Source: Blastocatellia bacterium (lineage in GTDB: Bacteria; Acidobacteriota; Blastocatellia; Chloracidobacteriales; Chloracidobacteriaceae). From it: a stretch of DNA of 64,000 nucleotides. The notes beneath the pieces are model-generated. The model did no database searches, was not told the origin of the DNA, and saw only the letters and a list, made by a program, of their open reading frames with translations. The stretch lies in NCBI GenBank assembly GCA_019695185.1, contig JAIBAN010000026.1, positions 1 through 64,000 on the forward strand, given 5' to 3'. The position numbers and the translations under genes were made by a program. Position 1 is the first letter of the stretch; each line of letters opens with the position of its first letter. Of the stretch, positions 7,070-14,849 are shown piece after piece.

Positions 7070-10000
7070 ATGAAGCACCGGAAAATGACACTGGCAAGTC
7101 TTTGCTGTGGCTGGTTGCTGCTCCTGTGGGGAAGCTGGGCCGAAGTGTCTCAACCGGTGGGAGCCGCCTCCAATCGGTTGCAACTGGGGCATCTGGGCTT
7201 GGAACAAGGGCTATCCCAGAGTGGTGTCATGGCGCTGCTGCAGGACCGCAAAGGCTTTTTGTGGTTGGGGACGCAGGACGGGCTGAACCGTTACGATGGG
7301 GCGACTTTCAAAGCATACCGCCACAATCCGGCGGACCCGACATCACTTTCCAACAATTTTATCAAAACTCTCTACGAAGACCGCGCCGGGCAATTGTGGA
7401 TTGGCACCGATGGCGGCGGGCTCAACCGGTACGACGCCCAAACTGACAGTTTTGTCAGCTTCAAAGCGGACCCAACGGTTCCCGGCAGCCTTGGGGCAAA
7501 TTCCGTCTGGGCGATTGGCGAAGACGCCCAAGGGCGTTTGTGGGTCGGAGGATATGGCAGCGGATTATGCCGGTTTGACCCTCAGGCAAACCGGTTTTCC
7601 GTCTATCAGCATGACCCGACACGAGCCGGAAGCCTGCCGGGAGATAACGTTTTTGCCCTGTACCTGGACCGCCAGCAACGGTTATGGGTTGGAATGTGGG
7701 GCGGCGGACTCTGCCAGTATGACCCGCTGACCGATGGGTTTCTTTCCTGGAATGATGGGCCGGAACGACCCACGGGGCTGAATTCCCGGTTTGTTTATGC
7801 GCTGACTGAGGACCGGCAGGGGAATTTGTGGCTTGCGACGGGTGGAAACGGGGTCTATCGTCTGGATGCCCGACGGGAACGGTTTGTCAATTACCGGTCT
7901 GACCTGAAAAACCCGGTCAGCCTGACTACGGATTATGTCTTTACCATCTTTGAAGATAGCCAGGGGAAAATCTGGGTAGGGACACGCGGGGGTGGTGTCT
8001 GTCGGTATAACCCGCAACGAGACGGTTTTGATGCCATGACCTTGGACCGAAACCATCCGGATGTGAGCAGTTGCCGGGTGATTCGGGCTTTTTTTCAGGA
8101 CCGGGCCGGAACGCTCTGGATTGGAACCGAAGGTGAAGGGGTTTATTTTTACGACCCGCTGGCCGAGCGGTTTCACAACCTGAAACCTGACCCACACCGT
8201 CTGGATGGGCTGCCCGAAAAGGCGGTCAAGGCCGTTCTGCAAGACCGGAGCGGCAGGATTTGGATTGGGACCTGGGGCGGTGGATTATGCCGGTATGACC
8301 CGGTGAGCGACCGTTATCAAACCTTCCGCCAGGAACCGCAGGTGCCCGGCAGCCTTCCGAATGATTCAGTCTTCGCGCTCTATGAAGATTCCGCCGGGCG
8401 GTTGTGGGTCGGCACCGATGGGGGCGGGCTGTGCCGGTACGACCCCGCCACGGAACGGTTTGTGCTCTATCCGGGGGACGCCCAAAACCCTGAAGCCCTG
8501 CCGAGCAACAATATTGCTGCGCTGGCTGAAGACAGCCGACACAATCTGTGGGTGGGACTCAATGGAAGTGGTGTATGCCAGTTTAACCCCCAAACCGGAA
8601 AAGTGCTCCGGCGCTTTCAAAATGACCCGCACCGGTCTGACTCGTTAAGCAGTGATGCCATTTACGCTTTGTTCATTGGGGTGGACGACACCATCTGGGT
8701 GGGAACCAGAGGTGGTGGCCTCTGCCGCTACCTTCCGCAGACCGAAACATTTCAGCAGTATGGCGTGCTTCCGGCACAAGCCAACGGGCTGACGGCCAAT
8801 GTGGTGAATGCACTCTATCAGGATGCCCAACGGGTGTTATGGATTGGCACCAGAGGCGGCGGACTCAACCGGTTGGACCCTCAAACCGGCCTGATAACGG
8901 TTTTTCAGATACAAAATGGCTTGCCCAATGATGTGATTAACGCGATTGCCCCTGACCGCCAGGGGAATCTGTGGTTGAGCACCAACCGGGGGATTGCAAA
9001 ATTTGACCCGCGCCGGGGAACGTTTCGCAATTTCGATGCCGGAGACGGTTTGCAAAGCAACGAGTTCAGTCCTGGTGTGACGTTTGTCAGCCGGGAAGGG
9101 GAAATCTTCTTTGGCGGTGTGGCGGGAGTGACCTCATTTCATCCGGAAGCAGTCCGCGACAATATGTATCTGCCACCGGTTGTCATCACCGATTTCAAAA
9201 AATTCAATCAAAGTGTGAGCTTGCCGACGGCAATTGCCGAAACTCCGGAACTGACGCTTGATTACAAGGATAACTTCATCACCTTTGAATTTGCCGCGCT
9301 CAACTTCACCAATCCGGGAAAAAACCAATATGCCTATCGGCTGGTTGGATTTGACCAAAACTGGATTCCCGCCGGTACCCAGCGCAGTGCCACCTATACC
9401 AATCTGGATGGCGGCACCTATGTTTTTCAGGTCAAAGGCTCAAACAATGACGGGCTGTGGAATGAAGCCGGAGCTTCCATTCGCTTGCGGGTGTTGCCGC
9501 CACCCTGGAAGCGCTGGTGGGCTTATTGTCTGTATGTCACGGTGGCTGCTTTGGGAATTTGGGGCGGTGTGCGCTTGCAGACCAATCGGGTGCAGGCCAA
9601 AGCCAATGTTCGGGAAGCCCGGCTGAAGGCCGCTGCTGCTGAAATCGAGGCCCGTGCGATTGCTGCCGAAAATCTCCAACGGGTGGCCAATGAAGCGGAA
9701 ATGCAGCGTAAGAACCAGGAACTCAACCAGAAAATCCGCGAACTGGACCAAGCCAACCAGAACCTGCTGCGTTCGCAAATGCAGGCTGACCGGATTTTCT
9801 CGGCCCTCGCCGAGGCCTTGCCCGGAACCGTGCTCGAAGGCAAATATCAGTTGGGGGAACGTATTGGTTCCGGAGGCTTTGGCGCGGTGTTCCGGGGCAA
9901 ACATTTGGGGTTGAATGCAACCGTGGCGGTCAAGGTTTTTCGCCCTGCACCGGGCAACGACAGCACGCTGGCGGTCGAACGGTTCCGGCTGGAAGGAGTT

Positions 10001-10852
10001 TCCGCCGCCCGCATACAGCACCCGAACGCCATTCGGATTCTGGATTCAGGGATTTCGGCGGAAGGCATTGCCTATCTGGTCATGGAACTGCTGGATGGCG
10101 TTTCCCTCGCCGATGAATTGGCTGTTCGCCAACGTTTGAGCCTGCGCCGGGCGGTGGCCATTATCCACCCGGTTTGCCTGGCCCTGGCTGAAGCTCATCG
10201 GTTGGGCATCATCCACCGTGACATCAAACCGGCCAATATTTTTCTCCACCGTGCGCCGGAGGGGGAAATCGTCAAACTGGTTGATTTCGGGATTGCCAAA
10301 ATGTTGGGCGAGGATACGGATGAAAAATTGCAGAACCTGACGGCCACCGGGGGTTTTATCGGAACACCGACCTACATGGCTCCGGAACGGTTGCGGGGTC
10401 AGGAATATGATGGCCGGTCAGATGTCTACAGCCTGGGCGTGGTCCTGTACGAAATGTTATGTGGCCGCACACCCTATGCCGCCGGTGCCGGAAATCCGTT
10501 TAGCGTGGTGGTCAAGCACTTGTATGAAGGGATTCCCTCCCTGCGGCAGTTCAATCCGCAGCTTCCGGTTGAGGTTGAAACCATCATTCTCACCGCCCTG
10601 GCCAAAAACCCTGAGGAACGGCCTGGAGCCAAAGAATTTGCCGACCTGCTGTGGGCGGCAGCCGAACCCTTTTTCGAGCCGGAGTCTATCGAAACCGGTC
10701 CGGCGCTTGTCACCATTGAGGTTGACCCGGATGCCCCGACTGGGATTTTTGACCAACTGCCCACCACTGCACGACCCCAGGTTGACACAGCAATGGAAGA
10801 AGCCCCGACCGGTTTCTTTGCCGGGCAACTGGAACAAGGCTCCCCGGATTGA
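7070..10852 (+). CDS. Two-component-type beta-propeller sensor fused to Ser/Thr protein kinase
   Basis: About 1260 residues. Order: signal peptide (about 5-30); 14 Reg_prop blades (about 35-710) with repeated LWIGTxGGGLxRYD motifs, enough for two seven-bladed propellers; Y_Y_Y domain (about 737-807); one transmembrane helix (about 813-835); cytoplasmic coiled coil (about 840-915); Hanks-type kinase (about 920-1190) with GSGGFG loop, AVKVF lysine, HRDIKPAN catalytic loop, DFG and APE-like PERLRG; acidic tail with three T-G-I/F-F repeats. Propeller-Y_Y_Y ectodomains normally drive histidine kinases of the hybrid (BT4663-like) type; here a Ser/Thr kinase takes that place. The start is the ATG at 7070, before the signal peptide; no good ribosome site is seen. 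The ligand is unknown, perhaps a glycan by family analogy. Confidence 0.9.
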   Translation: MKHRKMTLASLCCGWLLLLWGSWAEVSQPVGAASNRLQLGHLGLEQGLSQSGVMALLQDRKGFLWLGTQDGLNRYDGATFKAYRHNPADPTSLSNNFIKTLYEDRAGQLWIGTDGGGLNRYDAQTDSFVSFKADPTVPGSLGANSVWAIGEDAQGRLWVGGYGSGLCRFDPQANRFSVYQHDPTRAGSLPGDNVFALYLDRQQRLWVGMWGGGLCQYDPLTDGFLSWNDGPERPTGLNSRFVYALTEDRQGNLWLATGGNGVYRLDARRERFVNYRSDLKNPVSLTTDYVFTIFEDSQGKIWVGTRGGGVCRYNPQRDGFDAMTLDRNHPDVSSCRVIRAFFQDRAGTLWIGTEGEGVYFYDPLAERFHNLKPDPHRLDGLPEKAVKAVLQDRSGRIWIGTWGGGLCRYDPVSDRYQTFRQEPQVPGSLPNDSVFALYEDSAGRLWVGTDGGGLCRYDPATERFVLYPGDAQNPEALPSNNIAALAEDSRHNLWVGLNGSGVCQFNPQTGKVLRRFQNDPHRSDSLSSDAIYALFIGVDDTIWVGTRGGGLCRYLPQTETFQQYGVLPAQANGLTANVVNALYQDAQRVLWIGTRGGGLNRLDPQTGLITVFQIQNGLPNDVINAIAPDRQGNLWLSTNRGIAKFDPRRGTFRNFDAGDGLQSNEFSPGVTFVSREGEIFFGGVAGVTSFHPEAVRDNMYLPPVVITDFKKFNQSVSLPTAIAETPELTLDYKDNFITFEFAALNFTNPGKNQYAYRLVGFDQNWIPAGTQRSATYTNLDGGTYVFQVKGSNNDGLWNEAGASIRLRVLPPPWKRWWAYCLYVTVAALGIWGGVRLQTNRVQAKANVREARLKAAAAEIEARAIAAENLQRVANEAEMQRKNQELNQKIRELDQANQNLLRSQMQADRIFSALAEALPGTVLEGKYQLGERIGSGGFGAVFRGKHLGLNATVAVKVFRPAPGNDSTLAVERFRLEGVSAARIQHPNAIRILDSGISAEGIAYLVMELLDGVSLADELAVRQRLSLRRAVAIIHPVCLALAEAHRLGIIHRDIKPANIFLHRAPEGEIVKLVDFGIAKMLGEDTDEKLQNLTATGGFIGTPTYMAPERLRGQEYDGRSDVYSLGVVLYEMLCGRTPYAAGAGNPFSVVVKHLYEGIPSLRQFNPQLPVEVETIILTALAKNPEERPGAKEFADLLWAAAEPFFEPESIETGPALVTIEVDPDAPTGIFDQLPTTARPQVDTAMEEAPTGFFAGQLEQGSPD

Positions 10853-10902: not shown

Positions 10903-10990
10903 TTTTTATCCTCACAAAATGGCCTGAGGGACAGTGCATCTCTCACCGCCGAAGTTCTCACGTCCGAAGTCGTTTGGAAACAATTCGCCA

Positions 10991-13633
10991 ATGCCGGTTC
11001 ACCGCAACATTTGGGGGAACTTGTCTATTGTGTGCATCCTGCTGGTTGCCACGGTATTGTTTTGGCCGTTGAAAGTGGTTGAGGGGCAGGCGACTGGATC
11101 CCAGGCCGCCCGGATTGCCAGCCTGGATGAGACCACGGCCAAATACGACCTCTCGCCGGTGATTGATATCCTGGAGGACCCGTTGCGGACCCTGACTGTT
11201 GAGGAAGTGGCCACACCCACCTGGGACAGCCGCTTTGTTCCCAATCGGCAGCCCATTCCCAATCTGGGGTTTTCCAATTCGGCATTTTGGTTGCGGGTCA
11301 CGGTGCAAAACCTGACCCTGGCACGGGATGAATATGTATTGGAGTTGGCTTTTCCCCGGCTGACCAGGGTTGATTTCTATCAACCGCAAACGGCGGGTGA
11401 GTCGGGAGAACGATTGAAAGCGCGTTTCTCCCATCAGGTTTCCGGGGCTGAAATTGCTTTTGTCCAACGGGAAGTCAAACACCACAATTTGATTTTCAAC
11501 GTGCATATCAAACCCAGGGAAGTCAAAACTCTTTACTTGCGGGTGACAGCCCGGAGTGCGCTCACTTTTCCGTTGACGTTGTGGAGCCGTGAAGCGCTGG
11601 TCGAAAAAGACCGGACTGAAGTGCTTATTCTGGGCATGTATTACGGCATCCTGCTGGTAATGGTGGTGTACAACACGTTTTTGTTTGTGGTGGTGCGTGA
11701 CCGGAACTACCTGCTTTATGTACTGGTTTCAACCGGCATTGGGGTCTTGCAGTTCGCCCAGGATGGGTTTGCCTCGGCATATTTATGGCCGGAGTCATCT
11801 TATTGGGCCAGTCATGCGATTTTGGTTCTGGCTTCTTTGAGTGCTGTATTTGTGGTGTTTTTTGCCCAGGAATATTTGTTGTTGCGGCGGAATGCCCCCG
11901 GTTTCAACAAATTTCTGCATGGTTTTAATGGATTGAATGGCTGTGCCGTTGTCTTTTTTCTGGTTTCCTATAACGTCACGCTGCATAAACTGGAAACCTT
12001 TGGCGGGATTCTGCTGTTTCTCATTTTATTGGCTGGAACCATCCTTTGCATGCAACGGAAATATCGCCCGGCCCGGTTTTATCTGCTTTCGGTCGTGTCT
12101 CTGGCTGCCGGTTTCTGTATCTCTCTGATGCGCAACTTTGGCTTTTTTCCGGACAATTTCCTGACTCATTACAGCATTCATATTGGGACGGCAGTGGACG
12201 TGGTATTGCTTTCGATAGGGTTGGCCGACCGTATCAACCTGCTTCAGGCAGAAAAGCAAGAAGCGGAAACGGTTGCCGCACTCAAAGAGAAGGATGTGGA
12301 ACTCTTTCGCCTGCGCAACGAGGAACTTTCGAATATCAACCACAAACTGAAGGAACTGGACCAACTCAAAGTCGGATTTACCGCCATGCTGGTTCATGAT
12401 TTGAAATCCCCTTTGACGGTCGTCCGGACCACGCTGGACATGTTCAAAAGCAAGGACCTGCCCGCCCAGGTCTTGAACGAGTTGTTGACCACTTCGGAAC
12501 GCAATGTGGACCGGATTCTTACCCTCGTCAATGAAGTGCTGGAACTGTATCGGACGGAAGCGCAGGGACTACAGGTCAAACTGGAACCAGTTGCCCCCGA
12601 ACCATTTCTCTCTGCTTGCGCCAGGTCGGCCCAACTGGCTGCCTCTCCGCAATCCATCACGGTCGAATTCCGCCGCAAAACCTCCCTTCCACCCATTTCG
12701 GCTGACCTGAGCCAACTGGAACGGGTTTTTTCCAACCTCCTTTCGAATGCCATCAAGTTTACCGCACCGGGAGGGGCCGTTGTTTTGGAAGCCGCAGCCG
12801 TTCAGGGAAGCGGAGTGGAATTCGGATTGACCAAACTGGTGGTAAGCGTAACGGACACTGGGGAGGGAATTGCTCCGGAGGCCATCCCTTACATTTTTGA
12901 ACCGTATCGTCAGGCTGAAGCCGGTCGAAAAAAAATAGGGGTGGGGTTGGGACTGGCGATTGTCAAACGGATTGTGGCGGCCCACGGGGGCAATATCTCG
13001 GTGCGCAGCCAGCTTGGGGTGGGTAGTTCCTTCACGGTCGTTTTGCCGGCGGTGTCGGCGGTGCCGGATGAGCAGGGCTGGGAATCTGTTGCAGGTGAGA
13101 CGAGTATTCCGAATTCCTTACTGCTGTGGGGGGAAAAGGCTGCGGAATCAGCAGCGGCCATTCCCCGGTTTGCCACCCAGCCGTTCATTTTGGTGGCGGA
13201 TGACAATCCCATCAATCGCAAGGTGGTCCAAATGCAGTTAAAGAAACTGGGCTGTGAGGTTGAAACCGTTGCAAATGGGCTGGAAGTACTGGAAGCCCTG
13301 TCCCGGAAATCGTTTGATCTTGTGTTTTTGGATTGCCGGATGCCTGAAATGGACGGCTTTGAAACAGCCGCAGCCATCCGCCAGCGGGAACAGGGAAGCG
13401 GAGCCTTGCTCCTGCACGGTGGTGAACCTGCCAAAGATGGGGCTCCAGCGGTGCGTGGCGGTTTGCCGCGGCTTCCGGTGGTGGCGCTGACGGCCAGTTC
13501 GATTGACGGGCGGGACTCATGCCTGGCCGCCGGGATGGATGATTTCCTCGAAAAACCGTTCAAGTCTGAAGAACTGGCTGCAATTCTGGCCCGCTGGCTC
13601 CCGGTTTCATTTGAGCAAGCACCTCAGAACTGA
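10991..13633 (+). CDS. 7TMR-DISM hybrid histidine kinase with receiver domain
   Basis: About 880 residues. Order: signal/TM segment; periplasmic 7TMR-DISM extracellular domain (about 45-205); seven hydrophobic helices (about 210-415); coiled coil; HisKA with phospho-His in MLVHDLKSPL (about 466); HATPase with LLSNAIKFT, DTGEGIAPE and GVGLGLAIVKR; receiver domain (about 730-875) with DD acid pair, phospho-Asp in VFLDCRMPEMDG, ALTASS and LEKPF. All catalytic residues are present. The output partner is not in the operon; a separate Hpt or response regulator must lie elsewhere. An upstream GTG at 10934 with a GAGGGA site is an alternative start. It is 138 bases downstream of another large sensor kinase, so they may respond to related cues. 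Confidence 0.92.
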   Translation: MPVHRNIWGNLSIVCILLVATVLFWPLKVVEGQATGSQAARIASLDETTAKYDLSPVIDILEDPLRTLTVEEVATPTWDSRFVPNRQPIPNLGFSNSAFWLRVTVQNLTLARDEYVLELAFPRLTRVDFYQPQTAGESGERLKARFSHQVSGAEIAFVQREVKHHNLIFNVHIKPREVKTLYLRVTARSALTFPLTLWSREALVEKDRTEVLILGMYYGILLVMVVYNTFLFVVVRDRNYLLYVLVSTGIGVLQFAQDGFASAYLWPESSYWASHAILVLASLSAVFVVFFAQEYLLLRRNAPGFNKFLHGFNGLNGCAVVFFLVSYNVTLHKLETFGGILLFLILLAGTILCMQRKYRPARFYLLSVVSLAAGFCISLMRNFGFFPDNFLTHYSIHIGTAVDVVLLSIGLADRINLLQAEKQEAETVAALKEKDVELFRLRNEELSNINHKLKELDQLKVGFTAMLVHDLKSPLTVVRTTLDMFKSKDLPAQVLNELLTTSERNVDRILTLVNEVLELYRTEAQGLQVKLEPVAPEPFLSACARSAQLAASPQSITVEFRRKTSLPPISADLSQLERVFSNLLSNAIKFTAPGGAVVLEAAAVQGSGVEFGLTKLVVSVTDTGEGIAPEAIPYIFEPYRQAEAGRKKIGVGLGLAIVKRIVAAHGGNISVRSQLGVGSSFTVVLPAVSAVPDEQGWESVAGETSIPNSLLLWGEKAAESAAAIPRFATQPFILVADDNPINRKVVQMQLKKLGCEVETVANGLEVLEALSRKSFDLVFLDCRMPEMDGFETAAAIRQREQGSGALLLHGGEPAKDGAPAVRGGLPRLPVVALTASSIDGRDSCLAAGMDDFLEKPFKSEELAAILARWLPVSFEQAPQN

Positions 13634-13642
13634 GGGCCGGAT

Positions 13643-14398
13643 TTAGGGCACCAGGATTTCCAAAAAACGGTCATAGGCGGAACCAACCGGCAGGTCCGGT
13701 TCGCAGTGCAACCGTTTGCGTTGAGCCAGAACTTCCTGTCCGGTTTGAGGGTTGAAAGCCGTCTTTTCAAACCTTTCCCAATAGATGCCCAGCCCTCGTT
13801 TTTGCCAGTTGGGCACTTGGGCGAATGAAATTCCGTAACCTTCCAACAGCTTTTCCTTGTCCGCCACGGAAACGGAAGCCAAGCGGGTGGCTGCGGTTTC
13901 CGGCGCGGCTCCGTGCTGGCGTAAGGTCCAGTAACACCAGGCATTGAGCGCATTGCGGTGGGCATCTTCGGCCCGCCAGCGAAAATAATCGCGGACCAGT
14001 TCCCGATTGGGCAGTTGGGAAATCCGGCAATCAAACACAGCCACGGTTCCCACCGCCAGTGAAAATCTGGCGCTCGCCTCACCCGCCAGAACCGAGTGGA
14101 GCTTGCGCAGTTTGCGCTGAAAGACGGTTTCCTCCGGATGCAGGAGCAAGGAAATCTCGTCGCTTTCCGTGTAGCCGTAGACCACACGAAATCCGCAGGT
14201 CATAAGGTGTTTAACCGTCAGCCGCATGGCATCACGGAATTTTTCATCAAACGGGGCGGCATATTTCATGACCTCGCGGGTGAAGGTGGTAAAGTGCCGT
14301 CCGTCCAGCCGGGCCACCATATACATGCCGGGCAAAACACAGTGGTCGTGGGCGGTTTCAAAAACCCGCATCCGGGCATCCAGGTCATCAAATTTCAT
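13643..14398 (-). CDS. Thg1-like protein (tRNA-His guanylyltransferase family, 3'-5' polymerase)
   Basis: About 251 residues. Thg1 and bacterial Thg1-like proteins add nucleotides to the 5' end of tRNA in the reverse (3'-5') direction; bacterial members repair 5'-truncated tRNAs. Metal-binding signatures are intact: RLDGRHFTTFT (Asp-Gly), YTESDEISLLL (Asp-Glu) near residue 90. NWQKRGLGIYW matches the C-terminal conserved block. The start at 14398 follows AAGGTGG. It overlaps the upstream PNK-like gene by 11 bases, so the two are translationally coupled. Whether the organism needs it for tRNA-His G-1 (normally encoded in bacteria) or for RNA repair is open; the partner gene favours repair. Confidence 0.9.
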   Translation of the reverse strand: MKFDDLDARMRVFETAHDHCVLPGMYMVARLDGRHFTTFTREVMKYAAPFDEKFRDAMRLTVKHLMTCGFRVVYGYTESDEISLLLHPEETVFQRKLRKLHSVLAGEASARFSLAVGTVAVFDCRISQLPNRELVRDYFRWRAEDAHRNALNAWCYWTLRQHGAAPETAATRLASVSVADKEKLLEGYGISFAQVPNWQKRGLGIYWERFEKTAFNPQTGQEVLAQRKRLHCEPDLPVGSAYDRFLEILVP

Positions 14399-14849
14399 CG
14401 TTCCACCTTGTGACTTCAAAAGATTGAGGTGCATCCAGCCGGACAAAAAACAAATCGTCAAAACCTTCGGCCAAGCTGGGCATTTCCAGCCGGTTGCGGG
14501 TGTTGCGCACACCTTGGGGCGGAATCCGTTCCGGCCCGGTTCGGGTTTCATTGCGAACCAGGGCCTCAGCTATTCGGGATTCGAAAAAATATCCGGTAAT
14601 CCGAAATCCGGCAGCCCTGGCCGGTGCAAGATAGCGGGACCGGTCACGCCGGGAAGGATTGGTGTTATCCACCACAAACGACTGATTCATTTCCAGGCAG
14701 GCATTGAGCAAAATCAGTTCGCGCTGCCGGGTTTTGAGCATGTCCAGATTGATACGGACATGCGTGCGAAAAAACCGCTCCCGGAAAAAAGTGGATTTTC
14801 CAGTAGCCTGAATTCCCATCAGGATGACGGCCTCTGATTGGTGTGGCAT
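14388..14849 (-). CDS. PNK-like P-loop kinase (AAA_33), RNA-repair partner of Thg1-like protein
   Basis: A compact 153-residue P-loop kinase: Walker A GIQATGKST at residues 12-20, an NLDMLK segment whose Asp matches the general base of T4 polynucleotide kinase, and VVDNTNPSRRDRSRYL, the diagnostic block of PNK-like (COG4639-type) kinases. These phosphorylate 5'-OH ends or small molecules. No phosphatase or ligase domain is present. I choose ATG 14849 because sequence further upstream is a TTTGAGC heptamer array; no Shine-Dalgarno is visible. Coupling with the Thg1-like gene suggests it prepares 5' ends for 3'-5' extension, which is my inference. Confidence 0.8.
   Translation of the reverse strand: MPHQSEAVILMGIQATGKSTFFRERFFRTHVRINLDMLKTRQRELILLNACLEMNQSFVVDNTNPSRRDRSRYLAPARAAGFRITGYFFESRIAEALVRNETRTGPERIPPQGVRNTRNRLEMPSLAEGFDDLFFVRLDAPQSFEVTRWNDEI

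What the first reader, a model, noticed from the sequence alone, without database searches (positions are those of the whole stretch)
7070..10852. Two-component-type propeller sensor wired to a Ser/Thr kinase
Fourteen Reg_prop blades and a Y_Y_Y domain usually sit on histidine kinases of the hybrid type. Here the same ectodomain, one membrane helix and a coiled coil lead to a complete Hanks-type kinase. This would turn a glycan-sensing or similar input into Ser/Thr phosphorylation. The acidic tail has three similar T-G-I/F-F motifs, which may be phosphorylated or act as docking sites.
Basis: partly seen in the sequence, partly recalled or inferred. Interest (0 to 1): 0.65.

Follow-up and report, generated by a model that had tools for sequence, protein, structure and literature searches.

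The report
Propeller sensors driving Ser/Thr kinases
This gene encodes a membrane receptor whose outer part is a sugar-sensor-type double propeller normally attached to a histidine kinase but here attached to an intact Ser/Thr kinase; the same genome holds about 28 such receptors, and one kinase module has repeatedly replaced the histidine-kinase output.

Summary
Window 7070-10852 encodes a 1260-aa protein: signal peptide, 14 Reg_prop blades, Y_Y_Y, one membrane helix, coil, complete PknB-like kinase, 68-aa tail (two TG[IF]F motifs, not three). The ectodomain models onto BT4663, the kinase onto PknA/PknB. It is not a lone curiosity: this 8.3-Mb genome (family of Chloracidobacterium, inferred) has about 79 propeller sensors, ~28 ending in this kinase, ~41 in histidine kinases, one in a SpoIIE phosphatase. 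These kinases share a coil/ADRIFSALAEALPGT signature and form one clade that also sits under 7TMR-DISM and PAS sensors and behind receiver domains beside hybrid histidine kinases. In the sensor tree, Ser/Thr-kinase output is scattered (at least 6 changes forced; single clade rejected, p 3e-7); two paralogues share 81-88% of coil/kinase but only 32-41% of sensor. So an STPK module repeatedly replaced the HK output. The direct fusion was found in 13 of 14 genomes of the order and nowhere else among about 1,300 sampled, apart from one independent GAF-containing case. Ligand, substrates and activity are untested; glycan sensing has no support from neighbouring genes. New variant of a known kind.

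The parts
7070..10852 (+). Whole gene: propeller/Y_Y_Y/TM/coil/Ser-Thr kinase receptor, 1260 aa
7070..7165 (+). N-terminal signal peptide (residues 1-32, hydrophobic stretch 6-24)
   Evidence: sequence; hydropathy 1.45; inference
7175..9301 (+). Fourteen Reg_prop blades, two seven-bladed propellers (within residues 36-744)
9302..9493 (+). Y_Y_Y domain (residues 745-808)
9515..9583 (+). Single membrane helix (residues 816-838)
   Evidence: position, model helix, hydropathy
9584..9769 (+). Juxtamembrane coil (residues 839-900); first part shared with propeller histidine kinases, second part shared with REC-STPKs; module boundary about residues 866-880
9770..9829 (+). RSQMQADRIFSALAEALPGT signature (residues 901-920) specific to this kinase module
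9845..10645 (+). Hanks-type kinase domain (residues 926-1192), catalytic residues intact; T1091/T1093 align with PknB activation-loop threonines
10646..10849 (+). Disordered Thr/Pro/acidic tail (residues 1193-1260)
   Evidence: pLDDT about 40 in most of it
10730..10750 (+). Tail motif DAPTGIF (1221-1227)
10799..10819 (+). Tail motif EAPTGFF (1244-1250)
10988..13633 (+). Neighbour, not shown to belong: 7TMR-DISM hybrid histidine kinase (DISMED2-7TMR-HisKA-HATPase-REC), 135 bp downstream
   Evidence: such a neighbour is not conserved among paralogues

Best explanation
This is a transmembrane receptor Ser/Thr kinase made by replacing the phosphotransfer output of a propeller-type histidine kinase with a ready-made Ser/Thr kinase module. 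Likely working: a periplasmic ligand binds the double propeller; the Y_Y_Y domains of a dimer close as in BT4663; the movement passes through the single membrane helix into the continuous coil; two kinase domains are brought together and autophosphorylate the activation loop (T1091/T1093); the active kinase phosphorylates cytoplasmic targets and probably its own hydrophobic-P-T tail motifs, which could dock FHA proteins. Shown here: gene, domains, intact catalytic residues, predicted folds, paralogue family and module swapping. Inferred: dimer, ligand control, trans-phosphorylation, tail phosphorylation, FHA docking. Unknown: ligand and substrates.
For: Domain calls and fold matches over the full length. 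28 own-genome proteins with all catalytic residues kept. The N-terminal part of the coil profile is matched in propeller HKs (median end at position 76 of 117) and the C-terminal part in REC-STPKs (median start at 61), so the join lies in the coil. L011 versus L022: coil 88%, kinase 81%, propellers 32-40%, Y_Y_Y 41%, TM 27%. Sensor tree: STPK output needs 15-16 changes, at least 6 forced by strongly supported branches; one clade rejected, delta lnL 844, p-AU 3.2e-7. Kinase tree: the PROP, REC, 7TMR and PAS kinases that carry the coil fall on one side of a 99% branch from nearly all other STPKs. The genome has 35 FHA matches, and one kinase of the clade is followed 16 bp downstream by an FHA-GAF-SpoIIE gene (L041). 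Tail motif [DE]x0-2[LMIVA]PT: 37 observed against 6.2 in shuffles.
Against: No biochemical evidence. Tail-motif enrichment may partly reflect common descent. No conserved partner gene marks a pathway. Many branches in the sensor tree are weak, so the number of swaps is a minimum plus a parsimony figure. The membrane helix is only modestly hydrophobic.
Confidence: 0.82

Rival explanations
1. The propeller is not a small-molecule sensor but a docking platform for envelope or surface partners (as for PorZ-type double propellers); the kinase answers assembly or contact rather than a soluble ligand.
For: Double propellers with similar architecture serve non-sensing roles (PMC5121618). Neighbouring genes are functionally mixed, giving no sign of glycan or nutrient operons.
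Against: Closest structural matches over the full length are BT4663-type sensors. The same ectodomain clade carries HK, STPK and SpoIIE outputs, as expected for a sensor.
Confidence: 0.2
2. The receptor works together with the downstream 7TMR-DISM hybrid histidine kinase (10988-13633) as one operon in which Ser/Thr and His-Asp signalling meet.
For: Same strand, 135 bp gap. Elsewhere in the genome kinases of this clade abut hybrid HKs through receiver domains (L035, L039, L040, L042) and one propeller-STPK sits 12 bp after an NtrC regulator and its HK (L022).
Against: Most of the other propeller-STPK genes have no HK neighbour. The orthologue in G003 lies at a contig end, so conservation could not be tested (L165).
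Confidence: 0.15
3. The kinase domain is a pseudokinase or scaffold.
For: None found.
Against: VAVK lysine, alpha-C glutamate, HRD, N1056, DFG and activation-loop T1091 all kept and invariant in 28 paralogues.
Confidence: 0.03
4. The fusion is an assembly error.
For: Fragmented assembly of 222 contigs.
Against: 28 paralogues of the same build, a probable orthologue at 68% identity over the junction region in G003, and the junction in 13 of 14 genomes of the order, including two-contig genomes.
Confidence: 0.005

Closest known systems
BT4663-type hybrid two-component sensors of Bacteroides (4a2l, 4a2m, 3v9f)
   Same: Full-length ectodomain: two seven-bladed Reg_prop propellers plus Y_Y_Y
   Different: Output is a Hanks-type Ser/Thr kinase, with no HisKA, HATPase, receiver or HTH domain
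Mycobacterium PknB/PknA receptor kinases
   Same: Kinase domain fold and sequence, activation-loop threonine register, membrane receptor layout
   Different: Ectodomain of PknB is PASTA repeats (PMC6213207); here a double propeller with Y_Y_Y and a histidine-kinase-type coil
Mycobacterium tuberculosis PknD
   Same: Transmembrane Ser/Thr kinase with a beta-propeller ectodomain (PMC6213207)
   Different: PknD has one propeller of six sheets; here 14 Reg_prop blades plus Y_Y_Y, and no NHL match
Reg_prop/Y_Y_Y sensors with other outputs, e.g. GdpX2 and GdpX3 of Xanthomonas oryzae (PMC6637768)
   Same: The same kind of sensor joined to a non-histidine-kinase output
   Different: There c-di-GMP enzymes; here a Ser/Thr kinase

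Membership tests
Hybrid two-component system (BT4663 type) | Reg_prop double propeller plus Y_Y_Y ectodomain | tested here: met
Hybrid two-component system (BT4663 type) | HisKA/HATPase_c core with receiver and HTH | tested here: not met
   no such Pfam match in 1260 aa at E up to 1
Hanks-type Ser/Thr kinase | Conserved Gly loop, VAIK Lys, alpha-C Glu, HRD, DFG, APE | tested here: met
Hanks-type Ser/Thr kinase | Phosphorylates Ser/Thr | not testable with these tools
   needs an assay
PASTA receptor kinases (PknB type) | Extracellular PASTA repeats | tested here: not met
   no PASTA match
PknD-type propeller kinase | Single six-bladed (NHL-type) propeller ectodomain on a transmembrane kinase | tested here: not met
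   14 Reg_prop blades plus Y_Y_Y, no NHL match
Coil-STPK module family defined here | C-terminal coil with ADRIFSALAEALPGT signature followed by a kinase of one clade | tested here: met

The most novel reading that the evidence does not exclude
In one order of Acidobacteriota a single Ser/Thr-kinase module (coil, signature, kinase, Thr-rich tail) acts as an interchangeable output that has taken over inputs of two-component signalling: propeller/Y_Y_Y, 7TMR-DISM and PAS sensors directly, and receiver domains fed by hybrid histidine kinases. Much of the input side of its two-component network would thus run on Ser/Thr phosphorylation, with propeller-SpoIIE and FHA-SpoIIE proteins as matching phosphatases.
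Probability: 0.7. Interest if true: 0.7.

Novelty: new variant of a known kind. Interest (0 to 1): 0.58.

Why it matters
Bacterial Ser/Thr receptor kinases are mostly known with a few ectodomains, and histidine kinases are thought of as the owners of propeller sensors. Here the same sensor clade carries histidine kinase, Ser/Thr kinase or SpoIIE phosphatase outputs inside one genome, so the question of how a sensor and coil drive different catalytic outputs can be tested with natural chimeras. The receiver-kinase operons give a direct His-Asp to Ser/Thr relay to test. The held open-access papers searched contain no description of it, though that library is partial.

Tried and rejected
Assembly chimera: rejected (paralogues, orthologue, junction across the order). 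Pseudokinase: rejected on motifs. Glycan sensing from gene context: not supported. A link with TPR-CHAT genes: three of about 28 propeller-STPK genes have an immediate TPR-CHAT neighbour (L025, L028, L031), with about 57 CHAT genes in the genome; a rough post hoc figure is 0.47 expected, P about 0.01, with an assumed 7,000 genes; kept as a lead, not claimed. Conserved partner gene: none found. Plasmid search returned propeller proteins; no place covered 80% of the query and the ten best matched essentially only the sensor part.

Full report
What is there. The gene at 7070-10852 (+) is a single open frame of 1260 aa. It reads: signal peptide; 14 Reg_prop blades at about 48-residue spacing; Y_Y_Y at 745-808; a membrane helix at 816-838; a coil to about 916; a Hanks-type kinase at 926-1192; and a Thr/Pro/acidic tail of 68 aa. 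The ectodomain model (mean pLDDT 90.9) matches BT4663 over its full length (E 4e-63, TM 0.81-0.83), and sequence alone gives 2.6e-119. The kinase aligns with PknB across the whole domain, including LTATGG against VTQTAA, which puts T1091 and T1093 on the PknB activation-loop threonines T171 and T173 (register; that these are PknB phosphorylation sites is from my own knowledge). All catalytic residues are present and invariant in 28 paralogues. The tail holds two TG[IF]F motifs, not three.

Host. The genome is 8.33 Mb in 222 contigs. Members of another genus in its family have two replicons of 2.66 and 1.00 Mb, 3.7 Mb in all, which fits Chloracidobacterium, whose isolates have two chromosomes of about 2.7 and 1.0 Mb (PMC8245765). 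I therefore infer the family of Chloracidobacterium (Acidobacteriota); genomes in this tool are unnamed, so this is inference.

One of many. A search of the genome with the whole protein, followed by fetching of the places found, gave 79 propeller proteins long enough for a tree: 29 with this kinase (one with a truncated kinase), 41 with histidine kinases, one with a SpoIIE-type phosphatase (L043), eight cut short or without a recognised output; one cut row duplicates a listed histidine kinase. The same kinase clade also occurs under 7TMR-DISM (L034, L037, L019), 7TMR-DISM plus four PAS domains (L038), and behind receiver domains (L035, L036, L039, L040, L042, L183), whose phosphoacceptor aspartates are kept. 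Three of the receiver kinases overlap the end of a hybrid histidine kinase gene (L035, L039, L042) and a fourth precedes one by 22 bp (L040), which is the layout expected for a His-Asp relay into a Ser/Thr kinase.

How the family arose. A profile of the juxtamembrane region is matched along its whole length by propeller kinases, only in its first part by propeller histidine kinases (median end 76 of 117), and only in its last part by receiver kinases (median start 61), so the join between sensor chassis and kinase module lies in the coil, near residues 866-880 of this protein. In a tree of the sensor's last 320 residues, Ser/Thr-kinase output is scattered through several well-supported sensor clades: 15-16 changes by parsimony, at least six forced by strongly supported branches, and a single clade is rejected (delta lnL 844, p-AU 3.2e-7). 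The window's protein sits in a clade (99%) of twelve STPK, four HK and one SpoIIE sensors. In the kinase tree almost all kinases with the coil fall together, apart from other STPKs (99% branch). L011 and L022 are a clear case: coil 88% and kinase 81% identical, but propellers 32-40%, Y_Y_Y 41% and membrane helix 27%. This is domain swapping with the coil as the joint.

Distribution. A profile of the junction (Y_Y_Y, helix, coil, kinase N-lobe) is matched end to end in 13 of 14 genomes of the order. In a sample of 396 Acidobacteriota, end-to-end matches occur only in the two families of this order. None was found in 282 Myxococcota, 294 Planctomycetota, 298 Gemmatimonadota or 39 mixed genomes; group names there come from the record titles of the centre genomes. 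Limits: only the five to eight best first-look candidates per genome were scored in the large scans, Bacteroidota could not be sampled, and variants with an inserted domain are missed. One such variant exists: a Thermoanaerobaculia genome has propeller-Y_Y_Y-GAF-kinase, whose kinase groups with other STPKs (on a long branch), next to a receiver kinase of the present clade (L196). The idea has thus probably arisen at least twice.

Tail and partners. In 58 tails of this clade the pattern [DE]x0-2[LMIVA]PT occurs 37 times against 6.2 in shuffled tails, and [LMIVAF]PT 47 against 14.4. Common descent may explain part of this. The genome has 35 FHA matches, and one kinase of the clade is followed 16 bp downstream by FHA-GAF-SpoIIE (L041). 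Tail phosphorylation and FHA docking are thus reasonable proposals, not findings.

Context. The window gene lies between an aldehyde dehydrogenase and a 7TMR-DISM hybrid histidine kinase. Flanks of paralogues are mixed and show no conserved partner. I found nothing that supports glycan sensing in particular beyond the resemblance to BT4663.

Verdict. The architecture is common within one order but I found no description of it in the papers held. The surprising part is the scale and the modularity: one kinase module used as the output for several kinds of two-component inputs. I call it a new variant of a known kind.

Noticed in passing
L025:10205-13783, L028:3-3083, L031:6767-10210 (own genome): TPR-CHAT (caspase-like) genes are immediate neighbours of three propeller-STPK genes; the genome has about 57 TPR-CHAT genes. 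Rough post hoc P about 0.01.
   Followed up: partly
L043:2842-8255: A soluble STPK gene followed 33 bp later by a propeller-Y_Y_Y protein with a SpoIIE-type phosphatase output: a possible kinase/phosphatase pair with a sensed phosphatase.
   Followed up: partly
L195:1197-5051 (other Acidobacteriota genome): A single protein with HisKA, receiver and then a kinase of the same clade: an HK-REC-STPK fusion.
   Followed up: partly
L022:3920-10999: Histidine kinase, NtrC-type regulator and propeller-STPK in a row on one strand, 12 bp between the last two.
   Followed up: no
L192:5312-7285: In the related family a propeller-STPK is followed by an STPK fused to an FGE-sulfatase (formylglycine-enzyme-like) domain.
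   Followed up: no
window 13643-14551 (-): A bacterial Thg1-type tRNA-His guanylyltransferase-like gene (Pfam Thg1 5.5e-31).
   Followed up: no
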